From: a virus
IMG/VR virus record: IMGVR_UViG_3300044766_000192
Span: 1-64,000 of that record
Length of the DNA stretch: 64,000 nucleotides
Strand: one strand, 5' to 3'
Shown in pieces: positions 1 through 44,186 of the stretch (the stretch's first letter is position 1; each line of letters starts with the position of its first letter). A model generated the notes under the pieces. It had not been told where the DNA came from. It did no database searches and saw only the letters and a list, made by a program, of their open reading frames with translations. The translations under genes were made by a program, and so were the position numbers.

Positions 1-1
1 A

Positions 2-244
2 GCCCCGAAGTACACACACAACGGGGAAGAGTGCATCGGTCAACCTTCGTATCGGCTCACGATCGCGCTACCGCCCGGTATCGAGCCGTTTCGAGCACGT
101 GCGGGCTACTTATCGCGCAAGAAGTATCAACCGACACGACACATCAAGAGCATTGAACCCGATGGTGAAGCGGAAGTTGTCTGCATCTCCGTCGATGCGC
201 TCGATCAGCTCTACGTTACCGAGCACTGCATCGTCACGCATAAT
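2..244 (+). mobile_element. C-terminal part of an intein in the SNF2 helicase
   Basis: The last 81 residues before the helicase body carry the intein block F (AEVVCISVDALDQLYVTE) and block G (HCIVTHN) followed by Thr as +1 residue. The His-Asn end plus a Thr nucleophile is the standard splice junction. The split falls within Walker A. The N-terminal blocks and any endonuclease lie upstream of the window. Confidence 0.88.
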
Positions 245-1477
245 ACGCTCAGCGCGGCGTACTCTCACGAGCCTCTCATGGGCAAGCTCGTCGTGATCGC
301 GCCGTTGATGGTTCGCGAAGTTTGGCTTGGCTGGCTGCGCCGGGTATTCCCCGGGCAGGACATCGGCATCATGACCGGGCGGCGCTTCGATCCGATCGAA
401 GCTGCCAAGCCGATCGTGTTCGGGCATTACGACATCCTTTATGGCTGGCAGGACGGCGCGCAGATTGGGACGCTGATCCTCGATGAAGCTCACATGCTGA
501 CGAATCGCAACTCGCGCCGAACGCGCGCGGCGGTGTTCCTCGCGAGTCGAGCTGAGCGCGTGATCGCGGCAACGGGCACGCCGATCTGGAACATGCCGCC
601 CGATCTCTGGAGCGTGCTCGGGCTCGTCGCGCCGGGCGCGTTCGGCAGTTATCACGACTTCGGCAATCGCTACGGGGCGCCCGAAGTCACGGAGTACGGC
701 ACGCGATTCACCGGGCTCTCGAACGATGCTGAGCTATCGCTCAGACTCTCCGAGGTCATGTTGCGCCGTCGATGGGTTGACGTCTGCGACGACTTGCCAC
801 CGATCTCGCGTAACGTGATGATCGTCGATCTCGACGAGCGGCAGCGGCGCAAGCTCGATATCGCGGCCGAGAGCCTGCGTCAAGGCGATCGAACGAACAC
901 GGCCGGTGCGCTCGCACGTTATCGCGATGCGCTGTCGATGGCCAAGTTGCCCACGGCGATTCAAGAAGCCGAGCGCTGTCTTGATCGCGGGGATTCCGTC
1001 GTCATCTGGACGTGGCACCGTGAGCTTGCCGATTCGATCGTCGAGCTACTCCTAGCCGGCGAGCGGCAAGCCTTCAAGCTGACTGGCGACACACCGATGA
1101 AGAACCGCGATCAGGTTCTGAACCAGTGGCGCGAAGGCTCCGCTGCGCTCGTCGCAACGATGTCCGTTGCGCAGGTCGGCATCGATCTCAGTCACGCGCA
1201 CCGCGCAATATTCGCCGAGATCGACTACACGCCAGCCATGATTGCTCAAGCCGAGATGCGAACGTTCGCACCGACGCGCCCAATGAACGTGACCTACGTC
1301 GTCGCCGATCACTTCGTCGATCGCAAGATCATCTCGGCGCTGCACCGCAAGCTCGAAGCAGCGTCGCCGCTCGGCGTCGGCTCGGGTGAGGGCGCTATCG
1401 CGTCGATCGACGCCGCGTTTCGTGGGCCCGAGGAGATCGCCGATCTCGATCGCTTCATGAAGGACCTGCTTGCCTAA
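2..1477 (+). CDS. SNF2/SF2 DNA helicase, 5'-truncated, with intein C-terminus
   Basis: This reading frame is open from the window edge, so the gene starts outside. Codons 1-81 are the end of an intein. The helicase extein resumes at Thr (nt 245), which by position should be the Thr of the Walker A GKT. Downstream are motif Ia (LVVIAPLMVREVW), the DEAH box (LILDEAHML), motif III (ATGTPIWNMP) and a helicase C domain ending in QVGIDLSHAH and a QAEMR motif VI. The family is the DEAD/SNF2-like helicase common in phage replication modules, where it remodels or unwinds DNA. The stop at 1475 overlaps the next gene. The N-terminal half cannot be judged. Helicase identity is firm, exact substrate unknown. 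Confidence 0.9.
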   Translation, partial: APKYTHNGEECIGQPSYRLTIALPPGIEPFRARAGYLSRKKYQPTRHIKSIEPDGEAEVVCISVDALDQLYVTEHCIVTHNTLSAAYSHEPLMGKLVVIAPLMVREVWLGWLRRVFPGQDIGIMTGRRFDPIEAAKPIVFGHYDILYGWQDGAQIGTLILDEAHMLTNRNSRRTRAAVFLASRAERVIAATGTPIWNMPPDLWSVLGLVAPGAFGSYHDFGNRYGAPEVTEYGTRFTGLSNDAELSLRLSEVMLRRRWVDVCDDLPPISRNVMIVDLDERQRRKLDIAAESLRQGDRTNTAGALARYRDALSMAKLPTAIQEAERCLDRGDSVVIWTWHRELADSIVELLLAGERQAFKLTGDTPMKNRDQVLNQWREGSAALVATMSVAQVGIDLSHAHRAIFAEIDYTPAMIAQAEMRTFAPTRPMNVTYVVADHFVDRKIISALHRKLEAASPLGVGSGEGAIASIDAAFRGPEEIADLDRFMKDLLA

Positions 1478-1643
1478 GCTGAAGAAACAGCCCTGGCTTT
1501 GCCCGTGCTGCCGTGGGCCATTGAATCGCTGGCGCCAGCGCGTGCAGGCTATTCGTCGAGGCAAGCGGGTAGTTTTTGATCGCTGGTACAGCGTCTGTTT
1601 GGCCTGCAAAGTTCGCGTTGTTTTGCACGCACATCGCGGCTAG
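1470..1643 (+). CDS. small zinc-ribbon-like protein
   Basis: A 57-residue basic protein with two Cys pairs (CPCC near residue 11 and CLAC near residue 43) that could bind one zinc. It starts at TTG inside the helicase stop region, an 8-nt overlap that suggests translational coupling. It ends directly before the class I promoter at 1641. Function is not recognised. The TTG start is chosen because no ATG or GTG precedes the first Cys pair. Confidence 0.55.
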   Translation: MPKLKKQPWLCPCCRGPLNRWRQRVQAIRRGKRVVFDRWYSVCLACKVRVVLHAHRG

Positions 1644-1673
1644 CTGTCAGAGCGATCTGGTAGACCCTAGTTC
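1641..1673 (+). promoter_or_regulatory. class I promoter, TGTCAGA type
   Basis: TAGCTGTCAGAGC is followed 4 nt later by TGGTAGACC, and the GTG start of the next gene lies 16 nt after the TGG. The same arrangement occurs at six other gene starts in the window. The spacing from TGGTAG to the start codon implies a nearly leaderless transcript. Confidence 0.7.
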
Positions 1674-1868
1674 GTGAAGATTCCACCCGAGATCATCGGC
1701 CCTGTCATCACGTTCCTACTGAGGGCCCAAGCTCGGGGTTGGATTGATCTCCGAGGTATCGAGCCGCTGCTCAAGATCATCGTCGAGTCGGGCAACGCAC
1801 CGCACATGCGTCGCGTGCTCGGCGAGATTCTCCAGATGCTCGAACGCGCGGAACAGGGAGGCTCGTAG
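1674..1868 (+). CDS. hypothetical protein, helical, 64 aa
   Basis: First gene after the class I promoter, starting at GTG with almost no leader. The sequence is amphipathic helical (IIGPVITFLLRAQARGWIDL, then two further helices) with no Cys and no TM segment strong enough to call. It heads a run of small overlapping genes up to the RecB-like nuclease. Function not recognised. Confidence 0.6.
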   Translation: MKIPPEIIGPVITFLLRAQARGWIDLRGIEPLLKIIVESGNAPHMRRVLGEILQMLERAEQGGS

Positions 1869-1869
1869 C

Positions 1870-2058
1870 ATGCTTATCCGGTTAACACCCCTGACGAAGA
1901 CGGTTCTCATCGTGTTGTGGATTCTCACGGGCGGGATAGCGGGAACGTACATCATTGGCAACTTCGTCCCGACATTCGCCAGCACGTGCGCGCTCGCCAT
2001 AGTGTTACTCGCGTCTATTGGGCTTCCGGTCGCACTGACCTGGAGGAAACTGAGATGA
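1870..2058 (+). CDS. small two-TM membrane protein
   Basis: A 62-residue protein with two hydrophobic segments (about residues 10-30 and 36-57) and a basic end (WRKLR). It starts 1 nt after the previous stop and its TGA overlaps the next ATG. The phage family is not recognised. Position among early genes and size are typical of small host-modifying membrane proteins, which is only inference. Confidence 0.6.
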   Translation: MLIRLTPLTKTVLIVLWILTGGIAGTYIIGNFVPTFASTCALAIVLLASIGLPVALTWRKLR

Positions 2059-2288
2059 GGGGTGGCAACCGGACAAAGATCAGTCTGATCGCTGGCCTCG
2101 TGTCGGCTATGGCCCCTACAACGCACGGCATCGATATCAGGCGGCACAGAGACAAAGTCGTGCTCAAGCACATCTCGCGCGAGACGCTGAACAATCTGCC
2201 GGGCTCGTGCTCGCCGTTGGTTCGTCGGGCTCGTCGAGCAAGTCGCAAGAGCGTGATGCGCCGTCGCAGGCTCCGAGGATGGCAGTGA
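2055..2288 (+). CDS. small basic protein, 77 aa
   Basis: Start ATG overlaps the previous TGA (ATGA), with a strong ribosome site GGAGGAAAC just upstream, which decides the start. The last 25 residues are very Arg-rich (RRARRASRKS, then RRRRLRG), suggesting nucleic-acid or membrane contact. Its stop overlaps the next gene. No family recognised. Confidence 0.55.
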   Translation: MRGGNRTKISLIAGLVSAMAPTTHGIDIRRHRDKVVLKHISRETLNNLPGSCSPLVRRARRASRKSVMRRRRLRGWQ

Positions 2289-2443
2289 AACGTTGTAAGC
2301 GTTGCGGCAAGAAGTGGTGCGGTACAGACAGGAAGCTCAGGAAGCTCTACGGTGAAAACTACGCCGATGGCGGCTTGGATGGTCGAGTAGCGCGTATCAC
2401 TTTTGGCGCCAAGAGGTGTCGAGACAAGGGCCCAAAGCGATGA
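2279..2443 (+). CDS. small zinc-finger-like protein, 54 aa
   Basis: Begins MAVKRCKRCGKKWCG, with Cys at residues 6, 9 and 14 and one near residue 48, so a zinc site is possible. It is strongly basic. It overlaps the preceding gene by 10 nt and the following one by 4 nt, as expected in this coupled cluster. Function unknown. Confidence 0.55.
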   Translation: MAVKRCKRCGKKWCGTDRKLRKLYGENYADGGLDGRVARITFGAKRCRDKGPKR

Positions 2444-2652
2444 GCTGGACCTGCGAAAAGTGCGGAACGGCGCACGACACGGACGCTCAACGTGAAGACT
2501 GCAAGAAAGCTCAGCGCGTGGTCACGTTCTGGGCTCTCAGCATCTTGCTCGGCCTGGTGATCGTGATCGCTGTTCCCGTGTTCCTGTGGAACCAGTATTG
2601 CTACGGCGACTGGAAGTGCGCGGTCATGCACTGCGTGAAGGTCGTCAAGTGA
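2440..2652 (+). CDS. zinc-knuckle plus TM protein, 70 aa
   Basis: An N-terminal MSWTCEKCGTAHDT motif resembles a short zinc ribbon and is followed by a TM helix at about residues 30-51 and a Cys-containing tail. The ATG at 2440 overlaps the previous stop (ATGA) and is preferred over the GTG at 2416. It may tether a small cytoplasmic domain to the membrane. Function unknown. Confidence 0.6.
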   Translation: MSWTCEKCGTAHDTDAQREDCKKAQRVVTFWALSILLGLVIVIAVPVFLWNQYCYGDWKCAVMHCVKVVK

Positions 2653-5024
2653 ACGAGGCTGCTTGTCTGCTCTGTCAGCGTCGGCTCGACGGTACGACCG
2701 CGCCGGGAATCTATCTTCATGAAGTCGCCGAAGACTGCCTCGTGCGCGTGGCTGATCAGTTTGGTGTCTCGCTCGACGACGACTACGAAGTCAAAGGCGA
2801 TGAGATCTTCTCTAGAGCCCAGAGCGGCTACATCGATCCAGATGACGGCGCGATCGAGCTGACGCAGTTCTTCTCGACGGATCAGGCGATCAGCCAGATC
2901 TTCGCCGAGAAGAAAGTCCCACGACTCGGTGGCATTTCGAGTGGCAGCGGCTGGAGCAACGTCTCGCTGTTCCAGAAATGCCCGTACGCATGGAAGCGAC
3001 GCTACCTCGATCGAGTCGAGCAGCCGAACATCCTCGGTATCGTCGGCGAACCACTCGCGCTCGCGATCGGCTCGCTCACGCACGTGTACCTCGCGATTCA
3101 TTACTACCGGATGATCACACCGGGCTATCCACTCACCGTCGAAGACGTTAACCAGCGGATGCGCGAGCTGGGTTGCAATCCGGCCATCTTCAACGAAGCG
3201 TGGCGGTTGTTCACAGGCTATCGGCTCTACTACAAGAACGAGATACTCGAACCGCTCGCCGTAGAGCACGATCTGAAAGATCCGCGCACCGGCCACTCGT
3301 GCCGCTACGACTTGATCGCGTTCATCCCCGATGAGAGCCCGGGGATCTTGCCGGGGACCTACATCGTCGAAAGTAAATGCTTGACGGGTGACTCGCTCGT
3401 TCACGATTACAATACGAGTCGCTTGGTCAGAATGGACGAGCTGTTCAGACGCGGAATCGCTCCAAAGGTCCTTTCCTATGATTTAGCTACCGGAAGGCTT
3501 GTTCAAGCACAGGCGCTTGTTCCAGTTGCTAACACCGTACGGCCTATTTACGATGTCGTTTCTGAGAGTGGGCGCCGAGTTAGAGCTTCTGATAACCACC
3601 CGATCTTGACGGCTCGTGGCTGGATTTGTGCGGGAGATCTAAAGTCAGGCGATTGGATTGCTGTTGCAAAAAACACGGGCGGCTTGCAACGAGCTTCGCG
3701 TTTCACGGACGCTGAGGTTCGCTTCCTCGGTTTCATGCTCTCTGAGGGCTATCTTACTGATCTCGCGTTTTCGCAGGTGGCTGGGCCTGTGTTCGATGCG
3801 TTTGTTGAGACGCTTTACGCAATGGGGTTCTCTGAGGATGGCAGTACGATTCACACTTTCAGACGAGAGCAGAAGAACTATTCGTTGAAGGACGGCACGC
3901 CATCCACGCTTCACACCATTCGTTTGTCGACGAGCAAAGGCAGCCCAGCGCGAGAACTGATCGGTGATCTCGGTCTATTCGGATTGCGCTCAGCCCAGAA
4001 GCGCGCCCCAGAAGAATTCAACGAGCTATCTGATCATCAAGTTGGAATCTTCCTGGGGGCCTTATGGGATGGCGATGGTTGTCAGTGTGCCGACGAAGCT
4101 CGAACGGACGTGACAATCAAGCACGGATCAAGATCTCGGGCTCTGTGCGAAGCTTCGCGTGATTTGCTCTTGCGTTTGGGTATCCACGCAACAGTTCGAG
4201 CATCGTGGGCTACGTTCAACGGCGTGCGCTACGATGTCTACAACACAACGGTTGTTGGTCGCCCGTCGAAGCGCGTTTTCTTAGATCGTGTGATCGATGG
4301 AACGATTCAATCCGTTCGCTTGATTTCGACTGCCATTGCTCTACGCGAGCGACTAATCGATGGTGATGACACGCTCATACCAGTTGCCTGCATCGTAGAT
4401 GAGCTAACCGAACAGCGCTTGAAAATTCCACGGGTCTACAACGGCACGAGGCAGCTCTCGTCAACGGTTCTCAACAAGTTCAAGAGCCAACCATCGTCTG
4501 CTTTGGAACGTCGAACACTATTCAAGTGGGCCGAGGATCTCCCGTTACTCAAGAAACACGCAGAAACAGAGATCTGGTGGGAACAGATCGAATCGGTTGT
4601 CATTTCAGGCGAGGAACGGACTTACGACTTGACTGTTCCCGGCCAACAAAACTTTGTTGTCAATGGTGTGATCACGCACAACACGACGGCGCGCTTCGAC
4701 TCGAATTCTCTTGAAGGCTGGAGCAACGACGGCGAAGTCTTGGGCCAGGTCGATCTCTGGGACCGGCTTCACCTCGATCGTCGATACGGTCCGCTGCGCG
4801 GCGTGATCATCAACTTGCTCGGCAAGCAGAAAGTCGCCGAGTATCATCGAACGATCGTGAGCCCGTCATCGTGGCAGATCGAACAGCACAGGCTCGATCT
4901 CCGTCGCTGGAATGGGCTCATCCAGCTCGCTAAATCTTCAGACTCGTTTCCTCGCGCTCGAAACAGCTGTGTTGGCCGTTTTGGGAAATGCGGGCACTGG
5001 GATCATTGCGCCTCGGGAGAATAA
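2649..5024 (+). CDS. RecB/Cas4-like PD-(D/E)XK nuclease with intein
   Basis: The precursor is 791 aa and the spliced protein 356 aa. The start GTG overlaps the previous TGA. A Cys pair (CLLC) is near the N-terminus. The segment SNVSLFQKCPYAWKRRYLD is the RecB-family motif, and the catalytic E-x-K strand is VESK, then the intein, then TTARFD. Restoring the extein gives the continuous active-site strand IVESKTTARF. Such nucleases act as phage recombination exonucleases, and this one sits upstream of the Sak4-like and DUF669-like genes, a frequent replication/recombination trio. Nuclease class is well supported. Substrate polarity is not readable. Confidence 0.85.
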   Translation: MNEAACLLCQRRLDGTTAPGIYLHEVAEDCLVRVADQFGVSLDDDYEVKGDEIFSRAQSGYIDPDDGAIELTQFFSTDQAISQIFAEKKVPRLGGISSGSGWSNVSLFQKCPYAWKRRYLDRVEQPNILGIVGEPLALAIGSLTHVYLAIHYYRMITPGYPLTVEDVNQRMRELGCNPAIFNEAWRLFTGYRLYYKNEILEPLAVEHDLKDPRTGHSCRYDLIAFIPDESPGILPGTYIVESKCLTGDSLVHDYNTSRLVRMDELFRRGIAPKVLSYDLATGRLVQAQALVPVANTVRPIYDVVSESGRRVRASDNHPILTARGWICAGDLKSGDWIAVAKNTGGLQRASRFTDAEVRFLGFMLSEGYLTDLAFSQVAGPVFDAFVETLYAMGFSEDGSTIHTFRREQKNYSLKDGTPSTLHTIRLSTSKGSPARELIGDLGLFGLRSAQKRAPEEFNELSDHQVGIFLGALWDGDGCQCADEARTDVTIKHGSRSRALCEASRDLLLRLGIHATVRASWATFNGVRYDVYNTTVVGRPSKRVFLDRVIDGTIQSVRLISTAIALRERLIDGDDTLIPVACIVDELTEQRLKIPRVYNGTRQLSSTVLNKFKSQPSSALERRTLFKWAEDLPLLKKHAETEIWWEQIESVVISGEERTYDLTVPGQQNFVVNGVITHNTTARFDSNSLEGWSNDGEVLGQVDLWDRLHLDRRYGPLRGVIINLLGKQKVAEYHRTIVSPSSWQIEQHRLDLRRWNGLIQLAKSSDSFPRARNSCVGRFGKCGHWDHCASGE
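3378..4682 (+). mobile_element. LAGLIDADG intein in the RecB-like nuclease (435 aa)
   Basis: Residues 244-678 of the precursor. It starts with Cys (CLTGDSLVHD, block A), has block B at ASDNHPILT, two LAGLIDADG-type helices (FLGFMLSEGY and FLGALWDGDG) and ends with a block F/G stretch finishing VNGVITHN before extein Thr. It is inserted directly after the catalytic Lys of the nuclease. All splice residues (C1, TxxH-like His, HN, T+1) look intact, so it should splice and could home. Confidence 0.93.
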
Positions 5025-5026
5025 CC

Positions 5027-5281
5027 ATGTGCGTTGCTCAAGCCATTGCTGATGCCAAGCTCTTTCTTTGGAAGCATCCGCTATCAACCACCGACGTCGA
5101 CAATCCGGTCGAGATCCTCGAAGACATCGTTCGCGAGTACGAGAAGGATGACGACGACGAGGCCGAAGACGATGATCACAACGCGTATCGCTGTGAACGG
5201 CTGCTCACCTTCATCAAGCGCTTGTACGATCAACGGAAGATCTGCGACGCCGAGTATCGAACCGCGTGTGCGATCAAGTAA
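5027..5281 (+). CDS. acidic hypothetical protein, 84 aa
   Basis: Starts at ATG 5027 behind GGGAG and 2 nt after the nuclease stop. It has a strongly acidic middle (EYEKDDDDEAEDDDHN) flanked by helices. Acidic phage proteins of this size are sometimes DNA mimics or partners of ssDNA-binding proteins. Nothing here proves that. Confidence 0.6.
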   Translation: MCVAQAIADAKLFLWKHPLSTTDVDNPVEILEDIVREYEKDDDDEAEDDDHNAYRCERLLTFIKRLYDQRKICDAEYRTACAIK

Positions 5282-5302
5282 CTAACTAGCTACTACTTAG
5301 AG

Positions 5303-5632
5303 ATGTCGCAGCCCGCAAACGCCGCCCGAACCATCGTCGAAGATGACGACGAAGGCCCTGATCTGCTTTCAGATCCGGCATTCGTGCCGTGTCGTGACGA
5401 GTACTGCACGCGCCCGGGGCTTCATCACGCCCATTCCGAGCCACGAACGCGATCGGGTCGTCATCCACATAAGCACTACGACAACTGCCCAAAGTGTCAG
5501 ACCCCCGTGATAGTCACCAGAACCGGACGAATCAGACAAGGGTCTAAACGAAGCCGCGCGATGACCACGGCCTTGTGCCCGGCTTGCGGATGGACCCACA
5601 GCAAAGCTCTCAAGAGGATAACCGATGCGTGA
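5303..5632 (+). CDS. zinc-ribbon protein, 109 aa
   Basis: The C-terminal half has CPKC and CPAC pairs about 30 residues apart, the layout of a zinc ribbon, and an extra CRDEYC motif near residue 33 could form a second site with nearby His. It overlaps the Sak4-like gene start by 8 nt, so it is probably co-translated with it. It could bind DNA or a replication partner. No family recognised. Confidence 0.6.
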   Translation: MSQPANAARTIVEDDDEGPDLLSDPAFVPCRDEYCTRPGLHHAHSEPRTRSGRHPHKHYDNCPKCQTPVIVTRTGRIRQGSKRSRAMTTALCPACGWTHSKALKRITDA

Positions 5633-6614: not shown

Positions 6615-6635
6615 CAAGCAGAAAGAAGACGCGTC

Positions 6636-7184: not shown

Positions 7185-7522
7185 TACGCTTTGCTCGATG
7201 CAAGAGCGTGGATCAGCGTCTTTCCTTTCGCGTTGATCGCGCTTGTCGGCTCCTCATTGCTCCACACTGACGCTGGCCGCATCGAGCGCTTTTCTGGCAG
7301 TTCATCGGCTCGGAGTAATCCGGGCCGTTGATCTTTTCGGAGTCATTGATCTGCGATGAACGCGGTATCACGTGATCTCGGCCGGCACTTTCTTTCGGAA
7401 AAAAGTTGACTCGATCGATCTTGATTCGCTATGTACGTGGCTCGCGGTTTCGCGGGTTCATCTGAAGACCGCAACGGAGTCGGTGCCGTTGCTTCACAAC
7501 ATAGCCAGGGGGCTGGCGTTCA
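7185..7522. other. intergenic region, 338 nt
   Basis: No convincing gene is visible. A sigma70-like element on the plus strand reads TTGACT (7405), 18 nt, then TATGTA, pointing to the wHTH gene at 7523. Several GATC sites and AT-rich patches are present. The region could be regulatory or an origin component, but no repeat family is evident. Confidence 0.4.
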
Positions 7523-8211: not shown

Positions 8212-11200
8212 ATGGTTGCCGTTGCCGAGCAACGTGTGAGCTTGCCGTTGCTTCGCGGCAGTGCTGAGGGCGCGGATTGTATGGCGTGCCCTTTCTCGCA
8301 CGAGGGTCAGCCGAATCGCCCCGTGTTCTCGGAGCATCCTGAGAAGCCGCTGTGGATCTTGATTGGCGAAGGCCCCGGCTTCAATGAAGTCCGTTTTGGT
8401 CGATGCTTCGTTGGAGCATCGGGCTCCGAGGTCGACAAGATTCTGACGAAGATCGGCCGCCCGCGCGAAGAGATCTACGTCGGCAACGCGACGCTTTGCG
8501 TTGATGGCTCAACAAATGTTCGACTCGGCGATGGTTCACTTGGGCGCATCGACCAACTCGTCAAGAGTCGATACTCAGGTTTGGTTCAATCAGTAGCGGC
8601 GGATGGAAGCGTCGTACTTCGCAGAGTGATCGGCTGGTACAGGAACAAGCGTGGTCTCCGTGAAATGCGCGAGGTCTCTACGCGAGGGGCTCAGCACACT
8701 GGTGGGCTCGGGCGGATTCATACGACGATGACCGAAGATCATCCCGTTTTGACCCCTGAGGGTTGGAAAGTAGCTGGAGAGCTGAATGGCGGATCGATCG
8801 CAACCGGCGATCTAGATCCAGGACACATTGGGCAACAGATCGCATACGGCACACTGCTAGGTGATGGAACGCTGCAACGAGGATCTCTCATCGTCCGTCA
8901 CGCCGTCGATCAAGCAGAGTACGCCATGCTCAAGGGGCAGGCGTTGTCTGGGATTGGCATTGGTTTGATCGAAGCGCCTCCGCACGGAAATCAGGTTCAA
9001 CGACAAGTCGGATTCAGAACTAAGGCTGGCTTGTGGGGGCATGCACTTCGATCTTCGTTCTATCCCGACGGAAAAAAACGAATCCCAAAAGAAGTCATCT
9101 CAAACGCGAGTATTTTGTTGTTTGCGATCTGGTATCTCGATGATGGCTCGATGAGCCATCGTGCCGAAAGTGGAAGAAAGCCGCGTGCAGAGATTTGCGG
9201 TGTGGCTTTTCCAGAAGAAGATCTGTTGGCGGCATCAGCCTCACTGAGATCTCTCGGCTTCGAGAACCGGGTTTATCGGGGGCGGATTCAGTTTGGTGTT
9301 GAAGCCTCTGCGAAATTCAGTCGAGCCATTGCTCGATTCGTTCCGCCGAGCATGAGCTACAAGTTGAGACCAGAGGATCGTGATCTATACGATCCGACCA
9401 CATTTCAGGCTGCGTCGGCCATTCCGTTTTTCGCTAAGGCTGATAGCGTTTTTGTGAGTCCGCGAGGGAAGCGTGAGCAGTCAGCGGTGTACTGCTTAGA
9501 AGTAGAGGATACGCACAACTTCATCACGCCAGCCGCAGTCATCCACAACTGCATCCCGAAGCCTGGCAGCACCGACGTTCACAGAAACCAAGCCGCAGCG
9601 GCGTGCAGAGAGCGAATGCAGCGAGAGCTGTCGCAGTTCCCCGGCATCCCGATCCTGACGCTCGGCGCTGTCGCTGCGCGCAGTGTCATCCCGAAAGAAG
9701 CGCTCGACGCGATCGATCCGCCAGATGTTCCTGAGTCTAAGCAAAAGCGCCAAAAGAAACGTCAGGGCGCCGAGACCGATGTCAAACAGAAGCGCGAAAA
9801 GCGGCTCGGCAAGCTGGAGCTGCTGGAGCTGCGAATCTTCAGGGAGCTGCTCGACTACCACAAGCGTGGGATCGCCGACGAGATCCGCCAGCGGTTCAAG
9901 AAGAAGGCGACGCACGCGCAGATCGAAGAGAGGCTAGAGCTTGAACGAGCGCGCCAGGGTATTGAGATCAAGGCCAAGGCCGACGCGCTGATCGAGCTGG
10001 AACAAGTCGAGGTCGAGAAGGCGAAGAAGCCCAAGAAGAAAAAGCCGATCAAGATCAGCGACATCGTGAGCACGTGTTTCGACGTCGACGTCGATGGCTC
10101 GGGTCTGCGCCCGGTGATTCCCGGGATTCATCCGGCGGCGCTACTACGCGGTGGCGGGCGCTCGATCGCCGGCAGTCATACGCCCGATCTCGCGTTCGTA
10201 AACCTGATGTACGACTTCGGCAAGATCGACGCGCTCGCTCGTGGCAAAGACGTTCGGCTCAAGCTCAACGTCGAGGTCGAAGGTCAAGACAGCGCCAAAG
10301 CTACGCGGCTATTCGTCGAGGCGATCCAACGGGCTTTCGACGAGGGCGAGGTAGCAATCGACCTTGAGACCTACGTCGATGATCCGTTGCGCCACCACGC
10401 ACTCATGGCCTACGTCGCGAAGATTCGCGCGATCGGCTTGGCAACGAAAGAGAAATCGATCTCGGTGCTCTGGGATCTGATCCAGCCGTGGGGGCTCTCG
10501 TACTTTCAGGCGATGCTGGCTACAGCCGACATCAAGATCGTCACCCAGAACGGGATCTACGATCGAACGGTCTTGCGCGCCAACGGCTACGAGATCTGCG
10601 GCGACAACTTCGAGGACACGCTGTACGCCCATCACTCGGCGTTTCCTGGTTGTGCGCACAACCTCCAGCAAATCACGGCGCAGTTCTTTGCCGTCTCACC
10701 GTGGAAGTGCTTGCAGGCTGATACAGCTGTTTTGCTGCCAGATCGCTCGACGATATCGATTCGCGAGGCAGTTCAACGGCGGATCCCGGAAGTCCTCTCC
10801 TATGAGGATGGGCAGATCGTTCCTAAACGGGTGCTTGGCTGGCACGAGGCGCGTGCTCCGGGTCAAGCGTGGGTCTCCATCAAGACTGAGCGCAGCGACG
10901 CGAAATACAATCGAGGGCTCATCGTTACTCCGAATCATAGGGTGATGACGCAACGAGGGCTTGTAGAAGCTCAAGAGCTGATCGCTGGGCAAGATCGAAT
11001 TGCAATTGATGAGCCACAACTATCGGACGATCAGATTTCAACGGCGATTGGAACGCTCTTAGGTGACTCAAGTGTGTTTGTCAGCCGTTCGTATCATCAT
11101 CGACCTTGGGAAGCCTCAAGAGCTAGTATTCGTGGTGGGCACGCCAACGAGGGGCTCCGCGATTGTAAGGCCGAATCGCTTGCGCTTGGGACCTCCGGGC

Positions 11201-14200
11201 AGTGTGTGCCTGCACATTCTCGCGTGTCGGGGGGCGTGACCATCAACGCTTCAAACTTCTACGCCTACGGTACAAGGTGGGCCTTTCAGTACATGCAGAT
11301 CGCAAAGCTCGTCTACGACGACGAGTGGAAGCGCCGAATCAAAGCCAAAGCGCTCGAAGTTCTTGGTCGTCGTGGGCTTGCCATGATGTACATGGACGAT
11401 GGTGACCTCCATAAGACCAAACAAACTATTGGGGCAGGTTTTGCGACGAACGGCTTTCCGCTAGAAGACGTTGAGCTGTTCGTTGGATGGTTGAAGGGCA
11501 AGTACGGGGAAGTTAGCATCTACAACTCGCGTGGGCCTTACGTGGCGATGTCGACCGTCGCGACTAAAAACATGCTTGAGGATCTTCGCGGGTTCATTCA
11601 CCCATCAGTCAAGTACAAGACCATTTTCGATGATCCATTCAAGCCCGTTATCAAAGGATATGGTGCTTACCACGCCGCGATTAGGTCTGTTGATCGGATT
11701 GATCGTGTGGCCTTGCGCAAGGGTCGTAGCTCACACGCAACTGACTATCGGTATTGCCTGTCCGTCGAGGATACGCAGCTATTCTATACGAACTACGGGC
11801 TTGTCTCGAACAGCGAGTTTCGCAACGCCGAGGAAGACACCGCGCGATTGCTTGCGTACAACGCCAAAGACACGGGCGCGACGCTCGCGATCAGGCCGGC
11901 GATCGAAATCGTCGTCAAGAAAAACGCGAACGAGCGGACCTACGCGATCGATCTAAAGATGGCCGAGATCGCGAGCCGCATGCACCGCGTCGGCATGCCG
12001 GTGTCGCGCGAGGTCAATTCCGAGCTGCTTACGACGTTCAGTAAGAACGTTGCCGAGGGCCGACAGCACGTCGAAGCTATCGCGAACGATCCGAAACTCC
12101 ATGAGGGAATCTTGCATCATCTCTCGTTGGAGCAAGCCAAGATCCAGCGCAAGGCCGACAGCATCGACTTCGAGGAACGCTACAATGCACGCCGCGGCAA
12201 GATTCTGACCGACGAAGCCAAAGGCAAATGGCGCTGGAAGATCTCGGCTGCCAAGCACGTCGCGGCGTTGCTTCAAGCGATCGGCGTGAACCTGCACCAA
12301 GTCACTAAGAACGGCTCGATCTCGACGAAGAAAGAGATCCTAGAGTCACTCGTTGACGTGCCGATCGTTCGTGATCTGCTCTTGTTCCGCGAAAACGACA
12401 AGCTCCTGTCAACGTTCATCTGGCAGATCTTCGATCGAACCGTCGATGGGAATATCATCCAGCACGGCTTCGCTGACGCCAACGATCGCATCCACCCGAT
12501 CTGGAACGTCCACAAGATCTCGGGCCGGTGGGCGAGCTACGAGCCCGTCGTCTCGAACGTCCCGAAGGCCAAGTACAAAAAGCTCGAAGGCGGCAAGCTC
12601 AAGCTCGTGCGGCCCAACTTGCGCCGACAGGTTCAGGTGACGCGCAAAGGTCGCAAGCTCGTTGGCTTCGATTTTTGCTTGGCGAAGGGAACCCTCGTTG
12701 ACACGCCGAACGGTCACACGCCGATCGAGAAGTTGAAAATCGGTGACCTCGTGTTCTCGTACAATCACGAAACGCAGCGTCCTGATTGCTCGCGCGTGTC
12801 ACAGCGCCTTTTCACCGGGATGCAGAAAACATTGAAGGTGATTCTCGACAATGGGGAGGAGGTTCGTTGCACAGCGAACCATCGGTGGCTAACGCGCAAG
12901 TATGGGTCTGGCCGAGCTGTCTTCGAGGTTGAAGCTAGCGATCTGAAGCCCGGAATGCGCCTGCTACCGTTGCGTCGAACGTATTCGGGCCCAGAACGAA
13001 GCTATGAGATCCTCTACTCGTATTCGGCATTCGAATACGTCAAGACGCATGTCGTTGTGGCAAAGGCACATCTTGGAGATCGGCCAAAGGGCCACGACAT
13101 CCACCACCGCAATGAGAACCCTAAAGACAATCGCCCAAGAAACCTCGAATACAAGCTCGAACATGATCATCTCGGTGAGCACAGCGCCTCCAATACCTCC
13201 GCTCAGTGGAAAGATCCGGCTACTCGCCAGAAGATGGTTGAGGGGATTTCAGCTTCGATCAAAGCACGTGGCGGTTATCACGGAGCCAACAACCCAAACT
13301 TTGGGAAGCGCACTGGTGAAGATGGTACGTGCCCGAATTGCGGAGCCGACACTTACTTCGGTGGAAAACACCCGAAGCGCTTCTGCTCTAAGCCTTGCTT
13401 CTACGAATTCAGGCGAACCAATCCTCGAAGGAGAGGTGAGAAATACGATGACCTTAACCACAAAGTGGTCGCCGTCATTGATGACGGGCTCGTCGTTCCT
13501 ACCTACGATATCGAAGTCGAGCGAGATCACAACTTCGCGCTAGCAGCCGGCGTTTTCGTCCATAACAGCCAACTTGAAGCTAGAAATCTTGCGTTGATCT
13601 CCGGCGACGAATTCTTGTGCAAGATCTTTGCAGAGGGCCGCGATATCCATACCGAATGCGCGCGAGTGATCTTCAAGGGCTTCGATCAACGTGAGGAGAA
13701 AGAGCGCAAACAGCTCCGCGATCTCACCAAGCAGATCGAATACGGAACCTTCTACGGTGGTAGCCCTGAGACCTGTTGGAAAGTCCTACTCAAAGATGGC
13801 CACAACGTCAAACTCGTCGATGTCGCTGCGTCGATCGGCACGCTTATGCGGCAGATGCCCGGGATCGTGCGTTGGCAGCGTCAGACTGTCGCCAAGGCGT
13901 CACTACCGCCGTTCACGATTCGCGATTTCGTGCTCGGGCGGCGCCGTGTATTCCCGATGGGTCAGGTTGATCCCAACGAGGCGTTGAATTTTGAGTCACA
14001 GGCGACCGCCGCTGCGATCATGGACACCGGCATGGCCGCGATGGACGCGCGGATTATCGATCAGGGCTACAAAGAGGTCGACTGCATCGTGCAGGTTCAC
14101 GACGCGGCGGTATACGAAGCGTGGGAAGATGATGCCGAAGACATCGCGCAAGACATCCATGAATGCTTCTCGCAGCAATACGAGCGCGATGGCCGGACGA

Positions 14201-14250
14201 TCCCCTACCCCGTCGATGTCAAGATCGGCGACTCGTGGGATCAGATGTAA
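8212..14250 (+). CDS. polA: UDG - exonuclease - family A DNA polymerase fusion with three inteins
   Basis: A 2012-aa precursor, about 996 aa after splicing. The N-terminal domain is a family 4/5-type uracil-DNA glycosylase with CMAC, motif GEGPGFNEVRFGRCFVGASG and a later Cys, which fits a 4Fe-4S enzyme. A charged linker follows. The 3'-5' exonuclease has VAIDLETYVD (Exo I), TQNGIYDRTVL (Exo II) and LLAYNAKDT (Exo III). The Pol A palm has motif A split by an intein (DF, then SQLEAR), a motif B region and motif C IVQVHDAAVYE. It is the likely replicative polymerase. UDG-Pol fusions are known in phages. Three inteins in one gene are exceptional. Confidence 0.93.
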   Translation: MVAVAEQRVSLPLLRGSAEGADCMACPFSHEGQPNRPVFSEHPEKPLWILIGEGPGFNEVRFGRCFVGASGSEVDKILTKIGRPREEIYVGNATLCVDGSTNVRLGDGSLGRIDQLVKSRYSGLVQSVAADGSVVLRRVIGWYRNKRGLREMREVSTRGAQHTGGLGRIHTTMTEDHPVLTPEGWKVAGELNGGSIATGDLDPGHIGQQIAYGTLLGDGTLQRGSLIVRHAVDQAEYAMLKGQALSGIGIGLIEAPPHGNQVQRQVGFRTKAGLWGHALRSSFYPDGKKRIPKEVISNASILLFAIWYLDDGSMSHRAESGRKPRAEICGVAFPEEDLLAASASLRSLGFENRVYRGRIQFGVEASAKFSRAIARFVPPSMSYKLRPEDRDLYDPTTFQAASAIPFFAKADSVFVSPRGKREQSAVYCLEVEDTHNFITPAAVIHNCIPKPGSTDVHRNQAAAACRERMQRELSQFPGIPILTLGAVAARSVIPKEALDAIDPPDVPESKQKRQKKRQGAETDVKQKREKRLGKLELLELRIFRELLDYHKRGIADEIRQRFKKKATHAQIEERLELERARQGIEIKAKADALIELEQVEVEKAKKPKKKKPIKISDIVSTCFDVDVDGSGLRPVIPGIHPAALLRGGGRSIAGSHTPDLAFVNLMYDFGKIDALARGKDVRLKLNVEVEGQDSAKATRLFVEAIQRAFDEGEVAIDLETYVDDPLRHHALMAYVAKIRAIGLATKEKSISVLWDLIQPWGLSYFQAMLATADIKIVTQNGIYDRTVLRANGYEICGDNFEDTLYAHHSAFPGCAHNLQQITAQFFAVSPWKCLQADTAVLLPDRSTISIREAVQRRIPEVLSYEDGQIVPKRVLGWHEARAPGQAWVSIKTERSDAKYNRGLIVTPNHRVMTQRGLVEAQELIAGQDRIAIDEPQLSDDQISTAIGTLLGDSSVFVSRSYHHRPWEASRASIRGGHANEGLRDCKAESLALGTSGQCVPAHSRVSGGVTINASNFYAYGTRWAFQYMQIAKLVYDDEWKRRIKAKALEVLGRRGLAMMYMDDGDLHKTKQTIGAGFATNGFPLEDVELFVGWLKGKYGEVSIYNSRGPYVAMSTVATKNMLEDLRGFIHPSVKYKTIFDDPFKPVIKGYGAYHAAIRSVDRIDRVALRKGRSSHATDYRYCLSVEDTQLFYTNYGLVSNSEFRNAEEDTARLLAYNAKDTGATLAIRPAIEIVVKKNANERTYAIDLKMAEIASRMHRVGMPVSREVNSELLTTFSKNVAEGRQHVEAIANDPKLHEGILHHLSLEQAKIQRKADSIDFEERYNARRGKILTDEAKGKWRWKISAAKHVAALLQAIGVNLHQVTKNGSISTKKEILESLVDVPIVRDLLLFRENDKLLSTFIWQIFDRTVDGNIIQHGFADANDRIHPIWNVHKISGRWASYEPVVSNVPKAKYKKLEGGKLKLVRPNLRRQVQVTRKGRKLVGFDFCLAKGTLVDTPNGHTPIEKLKIGDLVFSYNHETQRPDCSRVSQRLFTGMQKTLKVILDNGEEVRCTANHRWLTRKYGSGRAVFEVEASDLKPGMRLLPLRRTYSGPERSYEILYSYSAFEYVKTHVVVAKAHLGDRPKGHDIHHRNENPKDNRPRNLEYKLEHDHLGEHSASNTSAQWKDPATRQKMVEGISASIKARGGYHGANNPNFGKRTGEDGTCPNCGADTYFGGKHPKRFCSKPCFYEFRRTNPRRRGEKYDDLNHKVVAVIDDGLVVPTYDIEVERDHNFALAAGVFVHNSQLEARNLALISGDEFLCKIFAEGRDIHTECARVIFKGFDQREEKERKQLRDLTKQIEYGTFYGGSPETCWKVLLKDGHNVKLVDVAASIGTLMRQMPGIVRWQRQTVAKASLPPFTIRDFVLGRRRVFPMGQVDPNEALNFESQATAAAIMDTGMAAMDARIIDQGYKEVDCIVQVHDAAVYEAWEDDAEDIAQDIHECFSQQYERDGRTIPYPVDVKIGDSWDQM
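8497..9549 (+). mobile_element. LAGLIDADG intein in the UDG domain (351 aa)
   Basis: Residues 96-446 of the polymerase precursor. It starts CVDGSTNVRL, block B is TEDHPVLTPEG, the two endonuclease motifs are YGTLLGDGTL and IWYLDDGSMS, and it ends VEDTHNFITPAAVIHN before extein Cys. The +1 Cys, in spliced ATLCIPKPG, aligns with the conserved iron-sulfur Cys of family 4 glycosylases. The intein therefore sits at a cofactor ligand. Confidence 0.92.
10708..11811 (+). mobile_element. LAGLIDADG intein in the exonuclease domain (368 aa)
   Basis: Residues 833-1200 of the precursor. Block A is CLQADTAVLLPDRS, block B is IVTPNHRVMT, the endonuclease motifs are AIGTLLGDSSV and MMYMDDGDLH, and the end is LFYTNYGLVSN before Ser. 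Here the penultimate residue is Ser instead of His, an atypical but known variation. The spliced extein reads VSPWKSEFRN, as in other phage polymerases. Confidence 0.9.
12676..13566 (+). mobile_element. HNH-type intein in polymerase motif A (297 aa)
   Basis: Residues 1489-1785 of the precursor. It starts CLAKGTLVDTPNGHTPIEKL, block B is CTANHRWLT, and the end is DHNFALAAGVFVHN before Ser. Between the splicing blocks is an HNH endonuclease (IHHRNENPKDNRPRNLE) followed by a four-Cys zinc finger (CPNC, then CSKPC). This differs from the LAGLIDADG type of its two neighbours. It splits DF from SQLEAR, the catalytic Asp strand of polymerase motif A. Confidence 0.92.
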
Positions 14251-14254
14251 GCGG

Positions 14255-14294
14255 GCTAGCTGTCAGACCCCTCTGATACAGATTGAGCGTTGAG
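14255..14294 (+). promoter_or_regulatory. class I promoter, TGTCAGA type
   Basis: GCTAGCTGTCAGACC followed by TGATAC at 14274. The next ATG is 21 nt after the TGATAC, a slightly longer leader than at the other sites. It drives the small zinc protein and the UvrD-like helicase. Confidence 0.65.
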
Positions 14295-14432
14295 ATGATC
14301 TATTACCTTGACCTCCCTATTTTCGTGAAAGAAAAGCCACTGCGCTGCGTGAAGTGCAACGCAGTTCAGAACGAAGGCCGCTTCCTACCGTCGCATTGCT
14401 ATCGATGTGGCTGCAAAAAGTTGAGGCGCTAG
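14295..14432 (+). CDS. small zinc-ribbon protein, 45 aa
   Basis: MIYYLDLPIF start, then CVKC and, 18 residues later, CYRCGC, the spacing of a zinc ribbon, and a basic end (KKLRR). It is first in the transcript from the class I promoter and stops 1 nt before the helicase ATG. Function unknown. Confidence 0.6.
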   Translation: MIYYLDLPIFVKEKPLRCVKCNAVQNEGRFLPSHCYRCGCKKLRR

Positions 14433-14433
14433 C

Positions 14434-16956
14434 ATGGAGCTGACTTCAGAACAGCAAGCGATCGTCGCCTTCGTTGCAGCGAACAAAGGCAACCTCGTCA
14501 TCGAAGCGCTCGCCGGCACCGGCAAGACGTTTTGCTTGCTCGAAGCGCTGAATGTTCTGCCTCAGAAGTCCGCGCTCGTCTGCGCGTTCAACAAGCAGAT
14601 CGCCACCGAGATTCTTGGCAGGCTCCCAGTTCTGCCCCGAACACGCGTTGTTCACGTCAAGACGTTCCACGCGCAGGGTCTCGCGATCATCAAGAAGCAT
14701 TTTCCCGGTGTAAAGATCGGTGCAGAGGCGACGGAAGACATCATCAACACGGCTGGTACGACGCTCAAAACGCCCTTCAACGCGAAGCGCGCGGCTGTGA
14801 AGATCCTACGCCAGTGGAAAGAGCAGACGACGGCGCCGTTGCTGATCCCGACCGAAGAGGAGATCTTGGCGCTCGGGCTCGATCGAGATTTGTTCGGCCG
14901 CCTTGGCGACATCAACATCCAGGCGACGATCGATGCCGTGCGCCTCGGCTATCGATTGTCTCTAGAGACCAAGGCGCCCGAGACGATCGACTTTTGTGAC
15001 ATGGTGTGGTTGCCGATCGTCAAAGACCTCGCGCCGCCGTCGCGCTATCAGGCGATTCTCGTCGACGAACTACAAGACATCTCGCCGCCGCAGTTCGAGC
15101 TGATGCGCCGGCTTCTGATTCCCGGCGGTCGATTCATCGGCGTTGGTGATCGCAACCAATGCCATCCAGCTGGCGTGCTCATACAAACGACAGTCGGGCA
15201 AATACCGATTGAGCATCTCGATCCGAAACGACACAAGATCATCCCGTGGAATCGAAAGGCGCAACGCTCAACCGGCCAACGATCTTTCAAACTCGCATCG
15301 TGCCGATACGCGGGTGCCTTGCTGAAAGTTTCAACAATCGACCATTCTGTTGAAGTGACCCCCAATCACAAATTCCTTTGCCGCTGGGCGAAGCGGTCCG
15401 ACGTTTATATCACGTACATTATGCATCGTGCTGATCGTGGTTATCGAGTGGGTTGGTGCCAGCTATTCACAAAGGACAAGCACCTGCACTTCGTTACGCG
15501 ATGGCATCTTGAGCAAGCTGATGCTGCTTGGATAGTTGCTGTTCACGATACTCGTGAGAAAGCCTCGATCCATGAGAGCATTCTTGCTGCGAAATATGGT
15601 TTGTTCACCGCGACATTCAAGCCGGTTAATGCTCAGCGGCATCGTGAAGAAGCGGCTATCAAAAAGATCTTCGCTGGAGTTTCGCTTGTTGATCAACGCG
15701 ATCGGGCTCGGCGCTGTCTAACGGAGTACGGTCGAGATCTAGCCCTGCCGTTCTTTCCTAGACCGGGTAAGAATCCGCGAGATCACGATGGTCGGCCGAC
15801 TTACTTCATCACGCACGCGGCCAACTTAATTCCGGGTTTGATGACACTCCCTTTGCCTGATGGTCAAAATCGATGGACTTCGATTACCGGCGTCGAGCGT
15901 CGGATTTTCAAGGGTTTGATTTACTCACTAGATGTCGATATCGATCATAACTACTCAGCAGATGGATTGATCGTGATGAATAGCATTTACGGTTGGCGCG
16001 GTGCTGATGCGGATAAGGCTTTTCGATTTGCTAGGGAACAGTTCGGCGCCAAGTTCTTGCCGCTTACGACGTCGTTTCGTTGCTCGACGACCGTGGTTCA
16101 TGAGGCTCAGCAACGCGTGCCCGATCTCAAAGCGCACCCTGAAGCCGTGCCCGGTAGCGTCTCGCATGCGAGGCTATCGCAGCTGCCGCACCTGCTCGCG
16201 CGCGGCTACTCCGAGACGATCCATACGTTCATCTTGTCGCGCAACAACGCGGCGCTACTCGATGCCGCGATGTACCTGTGGCGCGAAAAGGTCTCGTTCC
16301 AGATCAACGCCGGGCGCGAGATCTTGGAGCCGCTGTACGGGATCATCGACGGACTACGCCTGACCTCGACCGACGATTTCAAGGTCAGCGTCGGGCAATG
16401 GCACGCTGCCGAGATGTTCCGCGCCGAGAGGTCTGGGTCAACAGCGTGGGCCGATCGCATCGACGAGCAGGCGAAGATGTTGCTCGCGACAGCAGGCTAC
16501 ACGGCGCCAAAGAAAATAAAGCAGCTATTCCAAGAGATGCTCAAGGCTAGCGGCTCGGGCGTGTTGTTGTCGACGGTGCACAAGGTCAAGGGCCTCGAAG
16601 CCGATCGCGTTTTCTTGCTCAAGCAGACGTTCGCGTGTGGTCGAGTAGTCGACGACGACGACGATCGCCCGCCACCGCAAGAAGAGATCAACATCGAATA
16701 CGTCGCGATCACGCGCGCTCGCGAGCACCTGACTTGGGTCGACATCGATCCGCAGGCTCGCGTCGTGGTCAATGCCGAGGACGAGCTTGACAGGCTGCCC
16801 GAATGCACCGACGGCCTATCGATAGGCGAGATCGGAGATCTCTTCGTCTACGCCGAGCGTCGAGCGCTGGAGCTGATGGAGAGCGATGAAGCGCTCGCCG
16901 ATCGCTGGATGGCCCGCGCCGAGATGTTGAACAAGGTGATGAAAGAGGCTCGATGA
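14434..16956 (+). CDS. UvrD/Rep-like SF1 helicase with intein
   Basis: 840-aa precursor, 566 aa spliced. Walker A is EALAGTGKTF (residues 24-33), the DExx box is VDELQD (about residue 210), motif III is VGDRNQ then, after the intein, SIYGWRGAD. Motif IV-like TTSFRCS, motif V STVHKVKGLEADRVF and motif VI NIEYVAITRAREHL are in order. It unwinds DNA 3'-5' in replication or repair. The helicase domains are compact, without the large 1B/2B inserts of UvrD. Its end overlaps the next gene (ATGA). Confidence 0.92.
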   Translation: MELTSEQQAIVAFVAANKGNLVIEALAGTGKTFCLLEALNVLPQKSALVCAFNKQIATEILGRLPVLPRTRVVHVKTFHAQGLAIIKKHFPGVKIGAEATEDIINTAGTTLKTPFNAKRAAVKILRQWKEQTTAPLLIPTEEEILALGLDRDLFGRLGDINIQATIDAVRLGYRLSLETKAPETIDFCDMVWLPIVKDLAPPSRYQAILVDELQDISPPQFELMRRLLIPGGRFIGVGDRNQCHPAGVLIQTTVGQIPIEHLDPKRHKIIPWNRKAQRSTGQRSFKLASCRYAGALLKVSTIDHSVEVTPNHKFLCRWAKRSDVYITYIMHRADRGYRVGWCQLFTKDKHLHFVTRWHLEQADAAWIVAVHDTREKASIHESILAAKYGLFTATFKPVNAQRHREEAAIKKIFAGVSLVDQRDRARRCLTEYGRDLALPFFPRPGKNPRDHDGRPTYFITHAANLIPGLMTLPLPDGQNRWTSITGVERRIFKGLIYSLDVDIDHNYSADGLIVMNSIYGWRGADADKAFRFAREQFGAKFLPLTTSFRCSTTVVHEAQQRVPDLKAHPEAVPGSVSHARLSQLPHLLARGYSETIHTFILSRNNAALLDAAMYLWREKVSFQINAGREILEPLYGIIDGLRLTSTDDFKVSVGQWHAAEMFRAERSGSTAWADRIDEQAKMLLATAGYTAPKKIKQLFQEMLKASGSGVLLSTVHKVKGLEADRVFLLKQTFACGRVVDDDDDRPPPQEEINIEYVAITRAREHLTWVDIDPQARVVVNAEDELDRLPECTDGLSIGEIGDLFVYAERRALELMESDEALADRWMARAEMLNKVMKEAR
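15160..15981 (+). mobile_element. intein in the UvrD-like helicase, no LAGLIDADG (274 aa)
   Basis: Residues 243-516. It begins CHPAGVLIQTTVG, block B is VTPNHKFLC, block F is YSLDVDIDHNYS and it ends DGLIVMN before Ser. The penultimate residue is Met, not His. Between blocks B and F there is no LAGLIDADG or HNH motif. A segment WIVAVHDTREKASIHESILA and AAKYGL is of unknown type. It may be a degenerate or unfamiliar endonuclease, or only a linker. Confidence 0.88.
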
Positions 16957-43545: not shown

Positions 43546-43560
43546 TCGCCGATTCTAGCG
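43546..43560 (-). promoter_or_regulatory. class II leaderless promoter
   Basis: Minus strand CGCTAGAATCGGCGA directly precedes ATG 43545. TAGAAT is close to the sigma70 -10. Confidence 0.6.
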
Positions 43561-43564
43561 CAAG

Positions 43565-44151: not shown

Positions 44152-44186
44152 GCTCCATGATCTAGCAGATTGCTCTGACAGCTAGC
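44152..44186 (-). promoter_or_regulatory. class I promoter, TGTCAGA type, minus strand
   Basis: Minus strand GCTAGCTGTCAGAGC, then TGCTAGATC, with GTG (44151) 16 nt after the TGC. It is the only class I site found on the minus strand. Confidence 0.7.

What the first reader, a model, noticed from the sequence alone, without database searches (positions are those of the whole stretch)
2..15981. Six inteins in four replication genes within 16 kb
The SNF2 helicase, the RecB-like nuclease, the UDG-Exo-Pol protein (three) and the UvrD-like helicase all carry inteins. Each lies on an active-site motif: Walker A, the E-x-K strand, the iron-sulfur Cys, the exonuclease region, polymerase motif A and helicase motif III. 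Three have LAGLIDADG motifs, one is HNH, one has neither and one is truncated by the window. The density is extreme, and all splice residues look usable. If splicing is regulated it could act as a joint switch on viral replication.
Basis: partly seen in the sequence, partly recalled or inferred. Interest (0 to 1): 0.9.

Follow-up and report, generated by a model that had tools for sequence, protein, structure and literature searches.

The report
Six mobile inteins in phage replication genes
A virus of microbes carries six self-removing protein inserts (inteins) at the active sites of four DNA-replication and repair proteins; its relatives carry different subsets, so these look like independently spreading selfish elements rather than one shared switch, and one of them appears to carry a type of DNA-cutting domain not previously reported in inteins.

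Summary
The six inteins are real. The window is bases 1-64000 of an 80,419-bp IMG/VR record whose ends overlap by 148 bp (one silent mismatch), so the genome is circularly permuted and the 'truncated' SNF2 intein is complete: a class-3-type intein with LAGLIDADG motifs. The corrected set is four LAGLIDADG inteins, one HNH, and one (UvrD site) with a probable GIY-YIG-type domain. All six sites are empty, in register, in at least one viral relative. The closest relative (polymerase 82% identical) lacks four of the six and has an extra intein elsewhere. At least ten insertion sites are used sporadically across about ten relatives. The SNF2 intein differs by 41% between two viruses whose SNF2 exteins differ by 7% (intein synonymous sites saturated, extein dS 0.54), so it was exchanged horizontally. 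The RecB intein is under strong purifying selection, nuclease part included (dN/dS 0.05-0.06). These are independently mobile homing inteins that should splice to active enzymes; splicing was not tested. A joint replication switch is not supported. The density is high but not a record: one unrelated viral record has 13-14 intein C-termini. New here: several apparently undescribed sites and a likely GIY-YIG nuclease in the SPO1-type helicase intein.

The parts
2..1477 (+). SNF2-family helicase gene, 3' part; the gene starts at record position 79145, across the record's ends
   Evidence: PF00176 and PF00271 hits; record-end overlap of 148 bp; joined ORF 867 aa
2..244 (+). C-terminal part of SNF2 intein (whole intein 346 aa, record 79478 through the overlap to window 244), class-3-type, LAGLIDADG, site GK|T in Walker A
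   Evidence: W(DHLW)-C(EHC)-T(THN) motif; same site in Erythrobacter phage L02 and PhiPA3
2586..5024 (+). RecB-like PD-(D/E)XK nuclease gene
   Evidence: PF12705 weak (E 0.0057); intein-free homologues in L015, L016, L040-L045
3378..4682 (+). RecB intein, 435 aa, class 1, LAGLIDADG, site ESK|T
   Evidence: PF14890 E 4e-20, LAGLIDADG_3; 92.6% identical copy in G001; dN/dS 0.048
8212..14250 (+). UDG - 3'-5' exonuclease - family A DNA polymerase fusion gene with three inteins
   Evidence: PF03167, PF00476, PF01612; four cysteines C23, C26, C96, C114 invariant in relatives
8497..9549 (+). UDG intein, 351 aa, class 1, LAGLIDADG_2, inserted before the third conserved (Fe-S type) Cys, NATL|C
   Evidence: same site in L042 and L044, empty in G001, L015, L016
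10708..11811 (+). Exo intein, 368 aa, class 1, LAGLIDADG_2, site PWK|S, ends SN|S
   Evidence: same site and same SN ending in L042; empty in G001, L015-L017, L040
12676..13566 (+). PolA intein, 297 aa, class 1, HNH, in polymerase motif A, DF|S
   Evidence: PF14890 E 6e-13, HNH_3 E 1e-10; same site in L040; empty in G001, L015-L017
13042..13152 (+). HNH_3 endonuclease motif inside PolA intein
   Evidence: intein residues 123-159
14434..16956 (+). UvrD/Rep-like helicase gene
   Evidence: PF00580 E 1e-18
15160..15981 (+). UvrD intein, 274 aa, class 1, helicase motif III, GDRNQ|S, ends MN|S
   Evidence: full-length match to the annotated SPO1 gp34.33 intein, same site; AF2 pLDDT 85.7; Foldseek hits are inteins/BIL/Hint
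15406..15597 (+). domain inserted in UvrD intein (intein residues 83-146), beta-beta-alpha-beta-alpha, probable GIY-YIG-type nuclease

Best explanation
Each of the six inserts is an independent mobile intein. A Hint domain should splice it out of the precursor after translation, so the helicases, nuclease and polymerase are made active (inferred). A nuclease domain (LAGLIDADG in four, HNH in one, probably GIY-YIG in one) cuts the empty allele of a co-infecting relative, and recombination repair copies the intein in (inferred from architecture and distribution). Insertions sit at conserved motifs because these give conserved DNA targets and imprecise loss is lethal. The replication genes of this lineage of environmental viruses are an intein hotspot with at least ten used sites, filled differently in each virus. 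The six are not one regulatory unit.
For: Hint and nuclease profile matches and intact open frames. Empty alleles in register at all six sites. Sporadic presence: SNF2 site filled in window, G001, L040/L043, L044 and empty in L015, L016, L042, L045; RecB site in window and G001 only; UDG site in window, L042, L044; Exo site in window, L042; PolA site in window, L040; UvrD site in window, L016. Further sites filled only in relatives: primase-like ATPase Walker A (G001, L044's record), UvrD Walker A (L041), Pol STF|C (L044), Exo ED|T (L045). Horizontal exchange: window versus G001 SNF2 extein 93% but intein 59% identical; window versus L040 extein 62% but intein 75%. Intein synonymous sites saturated against extein dS 0.54. 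Extein tree rejects window+L040 (AU p 3e-6); intein DNA tree disfavours window+G001 (p 0.027). RecB intein dN/dS 0.048 overall and 0.062 in the nuclease part, with dS (0.80) near that of its extein (0.64). Same-site relatives in cultured phages: SPO1, PhiPA3, Erythrobacter L02.
Against: No splicing or cleavage experiment. Two inteins lack the penultimate His. The intein-tree AU test is only marginal (0.027 for DNA, 0.09-0.11 for protein; the L040 copy is half length). Relatives are metagenomic fragments; host and ecology are unknown, so co-infection is assumed.
Confidence: 0.9

Rival explanations
1. The six inteins act as a joint conditional switch: a common signal blocks or permits splicing of all four precursors and so gates viral replication.
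For: All sit in replication and repair proteins, mostly at active-site motifs, so failure to splice would inactivate them; conditional splicing is established for single inteins (M. smegmatis DnaBi1, PMC6195587).
Against: Members are lost and gained independently; four of six are missing in the closest relative and all six in L015. The inteins belong to different classes and families. The DnaBi1 Cys48 toggle position is Val here.
Confidence: 0.04
2. One or more inteins, most plausibly the class-3-type SNF2 intein in Walker A or the Exo/UvrD inteins with non-His penultimate residues, modulate splicing speed of their own protein.
For: The penultimate residue affected splicing in mycobacteriophage Bethlehem RDF (PMC5050341). 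SN ending conserved in Exo inteins 63% identical; penultimate residue variable (M, H, L, G) in the UvrD family.
Against: Sequence cannot show regulation; sporadic distribution argues against a function the virus needs.
Confidence: 0.15
3. The inteins are kept because their nucleases damage intein-free competitors during co-infection (marker exclusion), so the load is partly adaptive for the virus.
For: Proposed for BsV and described for some phage intron endonucleases (PMC5871332 and references there). Purifying selection on the RecB nuclease part. Relatives differ in filled sites.
Against: No fitness data; neutral homing predicts the same pattern.
Confidence: 0.25
4. Some of the inteins, first of all UvrD (MN|S) and Exo (SN|S), are decayed and no longer splice.
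For: Loss of the penultimate His; weak Pfam score of the UvrD intein.
Against: Open frames; conserved or naturally variable endings across homologues; UvrD family keeps a block F Asp-His, and PMC5050341 notes a block F His can take over. Exteins intact and essential-looking.
Confidence: 0.07

Closest known systems
Bacillus phage SPO1 gp34.33 (UvrD-type helicase) intein; also CampHawk, Klebsiella phage KP2025 and Justusliebigvirus (phi92-like) helicase inteins
   Same: Same insertion site (GDxxQ|S in SPO1), same length class, 34% identical over the whole intein to SPO1, same inserted domain with invariant Tyr/Gly/Arg/Glu
   Different: Window copy ends MN instead of HN; lies in an unrelated virus with five other inteins
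Class 3 inteins of phage SNF2-type helicases (PhiPA3 gp233, Erythrobacter phage L02) and M. smegmatis/M. chimaera DnaB-1 (6bs8, 6rix)
   Same: GK|T Walker A site in the phage proteins, WCT triplet, non-nucleophile first residue
   Different: First residue Gly; two LAGLIDADG motifs, while DnaBi1 lacks a nuclease; DnaBi1 Cys48 position is Val
T5-like phage DNA polymerase inteins (Gostya9, SelmaRatti)
   Same: LAGLIDADG inteins in the exonuclease domain of a family A polymerase; 25% identity over the whole Exo intein, 24% over the UDG intein
   Different: T5-type site is PYA|CKDTDAT; the window Exo site is about 16-18 residues upstream, and the UDG site is in another domain
Mycobacteriophage C1 RecB-like (PD-(D/E)XK) inteins
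   Same: Intein in a conserved PD-(D/E)XK motif of a RecB-like nuclease (PMC5050341)
   Different: No similar mycobacteriophage extein found by sequence; exact site not compared
Zeta crAss-like phages
   Same: Many mobile self-splicing elements in core genes (PMC7886860)
   Different: Mostly group I introns with up to 3 inteins; here six inteins; introns were not searched for

Membership tests
Intein (Hint protein-splicing element) | Hint/intein splicing-domain homology | tested here: met
   PF14890, TIGR01445 or TIGR01443 for RecB, UDG, Exo, PolA; PDB class 3 hits for SNF2; fold match for UvrD
Intein (Hint protein-splicing element) | In-frame insertion with an exact empty site in homologues | tested here: met
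   Empty alleles in register at all six sites
Intein (Hint protein-splicing element) | Terminal residues: Cys1 (class 1), C-terminal Asn, Cys/Ser/Thr at +1, penultimate His usual | tested here: met
   Cys1 in five, Asn in six, +1 T, T, C, S, S, S; penultimate His in four, Ser and Met in two
Intein (Hint protein-splicing element) | Precursor splices to ligated exteins | not testable with these tools
   Needs expression and mass spectrometry
Class 3 intein (SNF2) | Non-nucleophilic first residue and Trp-Cys-Thr triplet in blocks B, F, G | tested here: met
   Gly1; DHLW, EHC, THN; same family as 6rix/6bs8
LAGLIDADG homing endonuclease (SNF2, RecB, UDG, Exo) | Two LAGLIDADG helices with acidic residue | tested here: met
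   PF14528 or PF03161 hits (SNF2 by its G001 homologue); motif list plus YLDDGSM (UDG) and YMDDGDL (Exo) read in the sequence
HNH homing endonuclease (PolA) | HNH motif | tested here: met
   PF13392 E 1e-10
GIY-YIG nuclease (UvrD) | beta-beta-alpha-beta-alpha core | tested here: met
   Secondary structure of AF2 model: strands 83-90, 94-101, helix 110-118, strand 122-129, helix 132-146
GIY-YIG nuclease (UvrD) | Tyr in first strand, YxG in second, Arg in first helix, Glu in second helix | tested here: met
   Y86, (Y/F/W)95-R-x-G98, R114, E139; Y86, R96, G98, R114, E139 invariant in ten homologues. The second motif is Y-R-V-G, one residue longer than YIG.
GIY-YIG nuclease (UvrD) | Significant profile similarity to known GIY-YIG families | tested here: inconclusive
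   hhalign beats 200/200 and 199/200 column shuffles, but 2-3 of 50 unrelated profiles score as high on shorter stretches; no Pfam hit, no PDB GIY-YIG hit
Conditional splicing switch | Splicing rate changes with a physiological signal | not testable with these tools
   Only the known DnaBi1 Cys48 toggle was checked, and it is absent

The most novel reading that the evidence does not exclude
The UvrD motif-III inteins (window, SPO1, phi92-like, Vibrio RYC) and a related Streptococcus phage methylase intein carry a GIY-YIG-type homing endonuclease inside the Hint domain, a combination reported absent in 2006 (PMC1564403) and not found in the literature held here.
Probability: 0.6. Interest if true: 0.6.

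Novelty: new variant of a known kind. Interest (0 to 1): 0.48.

Why it matters
It gives a natural set in which closely related viruses have different combinations of inteins at ten or more sites of the same genes, so gain, loss, replacement and selection can be measured site by site. If the UvrD intein nuclease is GIY-YIG, a further nuclease superfamily has combined with inteins, including in the cultured model phage SPO1, where it can be tested directly. It also shows that active-site clustering of inteins need not mean regulation.

Tried and rejected
First AF2 model of the UvrD intein with three sequences was unusable (pLDDT 36); six sequences gave 85.7. A fold search with the poor model was started by mistake and not collected. 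Pfam and PDB profile searches did not name the inserted UvrD domain. Profile scores against GIY-YIG sets looked strong against shuffles but were weaker against real unrelated profiles, so the claim is kept as probable only. The idea that the SNF2 intein is truncated was rejected. The idea of decayed UvrD and Exo inteins was rejected as less likely. A polymerase search of bacterial and archaeal genomes found no relative and so gave no host. A mycobacteriophage record asked for to compare the RecB site was not held.
Full report
WHAT WAS CHECKED. The window is bases 1-64000 of an 80,419-bp IMG/VR virus record. The last 148 bases of the record (L013) repeat the first 148 of the window with one synonymous mismatch, so the genome is circularly permuted and the SNF2 gene runs across the ends. 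Joined, the gene encodes 867 aa with a complete 346-aa intein.

THE SIX INTEINS. Boundaries were set by reading the splice junctions and checked against intein-free homologues. SNF2: GK|G...VTHN|T, 346 aa. RecB-like nuclease: ESK|C...ITHN|T, 435 aa. UDG domain: NATL|C...VIHN|C, 351 aa. Exonuclease domain: PWK|C...LVSN|S, 368 aa. Polymerase motif A: DF|C...FVHN|S, 297 aa. UvrD motif III: GDRNQ|C...IVMN|S, 274 aa. The spliced proteins restore Walker A (GDDPRVGKTL), the ExK strand (VESKTTARF), the third of four cysteines invariant in the UDG domain (C23, C26, C96, C114), the region before Exo III (SPWKSEFRNAEEDTARLLAYNAKDT), DFSQLEAR and GDRNQSIYGWRGA.

PROFILE EVIDENCE. RecB, PolA, UDG and Exo match intein or nuclease profiles significantly. 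The SNF2 intein was found by no Pfam Hint model over its cut-off but matches mycobacterial class 3 DnaB inteins in the PDB (E 1e-8) and has the class 3 WCT triplet with Gly in place of the first nucleophile. The UvrD intein scores below the Pfam cut-off, but it matches the annotated SPO1 intein over its whole length at the same site, its profile matches solved inteins (E 6e-4) and its AF2 model (pLDDT 85.7) is closest to BIL and intein folds.

DISTRIBUTION. A polymerase-based search of IMG/VR gave about a dozen relatives. G001, with polymerase 82% identical, has the SNF2 and RecB inteins, lacks the UDG, Exo, PolA and UvrD inteins, and has another intein in the Walker A of a primase-like ATPase whose site is empty in the window's virus. 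L015 has none of the six. L016 has only the UvrD intein. L040 (and L043, apparently the same population) has SNF2 and PolA. L042 has UDG and Exo. L044 has SNF2, UDG and a new polymerase site (STF|C), and its record also has the ATPase intein. L041 has a UvrD Walker A intein. L045 has an Exo-domain site (ED|T). Every one of the six sites is filled in some relatives and empty in others, and no fixed combination recurs.

HORIZONTAL EXCHANGE AND SELECTION. Between the window and G001 the SNF2 extein is 93% identical and its intein 59%; between the window and L040 the extein is 62% and the intein 75%. Synonymous sites of the intein are saturated between window and G001 while the extein has dS 0.54. 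The extein tree places window with G001 with full support and rejects window with L040 (p 3e-6). The intein tree at DNA level disfavours window with G001 (p 0.027), although protein-level tests are not significant (p 0.09-0.11). In the same pair of viruses the RecB intein is 93% identical with dS 0.80 against 0.64 in its extein, and dN/dS is 0.048 for the intein and 0.062 for its nuclease part. So one intein was replaced while another was inherited, and the nuclease of the latter is under purifying selection.

SPLICE RESIDUES. The Exo and UvrD inteins lack the penultimate His. The Exo ending LVSN is identical in L042, and the UvrD family shows M, H, L and G at that position. Mycobacteriophage inteins also vary here (Gly, Lys, Ser; PMC5050341), so these are better read as natural variants than as decay. 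Splicing itself is inferred, not shown.

THE UvrD INTEIN'S INSERTED DOMAIN. Residues 83-146 form beta-beta-alpha-beta-alpha in the model. Ten homologues, including SPO1, phi92-like phages, Vibrio RYC and a Streptococcus phage methylase intein, share invariant Tyr and Met in the first strand, RxG in the second, Arg in the first helix, and Trp, Ala and Glu after it. That is the GIY-YIG layout. hhalign against GIY-YIG sets beats 200/200 and 199/200 column shuffles, and against a combined set aligns 61 columns covering the strand and helix motifs, but 2-3 of 50 unrelated profiles reach such scores on shorter stretches. The call is probable, not proven. A 2006 survey found GIY-YIG in no intein (PMC1564403), and none of the searches of the held papers found a later report.

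DENSITY. Six inteins in 80 kb is high. Mycobacteriophages average 1.4 per intein-positive genome (229 in 161; PMC5050341), and zeta crAss-like phages reach 3 inteins plus 14 introns (PMC7886860). But an unrelated IMG/VR record, IMGVR_UViG_3300017971_000207 (145 kb), has 13 intein C-terminal matches over the family cut-off plus one below it, three of them in one PolA gene or its neighbourhood of motifs, one at the same motif A site.

CONCLUSION. The mechanism best supported is independent homing inteins at conserved sites of replication genes. A joint switch is not supported. The parts that may be new are the UDG and Exo sites (none of the junctions inspected among the nearest inteins of 50,697 phage records lay at the same site), the RecB ExK site in this nuclease family, and the probable GIY-YIG domain of the SPO1-type helicase inteins.

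Noticed in passing
IMGVR_UViG_3300017971_000207 (G010; L048, L074-L076): 145-kb viral record with 13-14 intein C-terminal matches; its PolA gene (43080-47960, minus strand) appears to hold three inteins, one at the same motif A site as the window's but of a different type.
   Followed up: partly
L013 18273-18420 and window 1-148: Record ends overlap by 148 bp with one mismatch, so the genome is circular or circularly permuted.
   Followed up: yes
L040 polymerase, around locus 13262: The residue after the PolA intein is Cys (HN|CQLEAR), where uninvaded relatives have Ala, Ser or Gly; the extein residue appears to follow the needs of the intein. UvrD empty sites likewise carry Gln or Gly instead of Ser.
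   Followed up: no
G001 ATPase intein (L024 2760-5207, minus strand) and L041 UvrD Walker A intein (9862-10887): Two inteins about 52% identical sit in the Walker A motifs of unrelated ATPases, suggesting a jump between genes with similar target sequence.
   Followed up: partly
L013 11872-13548 (minus strand): HerA/DUF87-like ATPase with a match to a phage terminase family is the only packaging-like protein recognised; no capsid protein was recognised among the proteins scanned. Virion type is unclear.
   Followed up: no
window 26431-27321 (minus strand) and 17244-18182: Phage-type integrase and a D12-class adenine methyltransferase.
   Followed up: no
window 56504-57532: Protein with HNH endonuclease and DNA-binding domains, possibly a free-standing homing endonuclease.
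   Followed up: no
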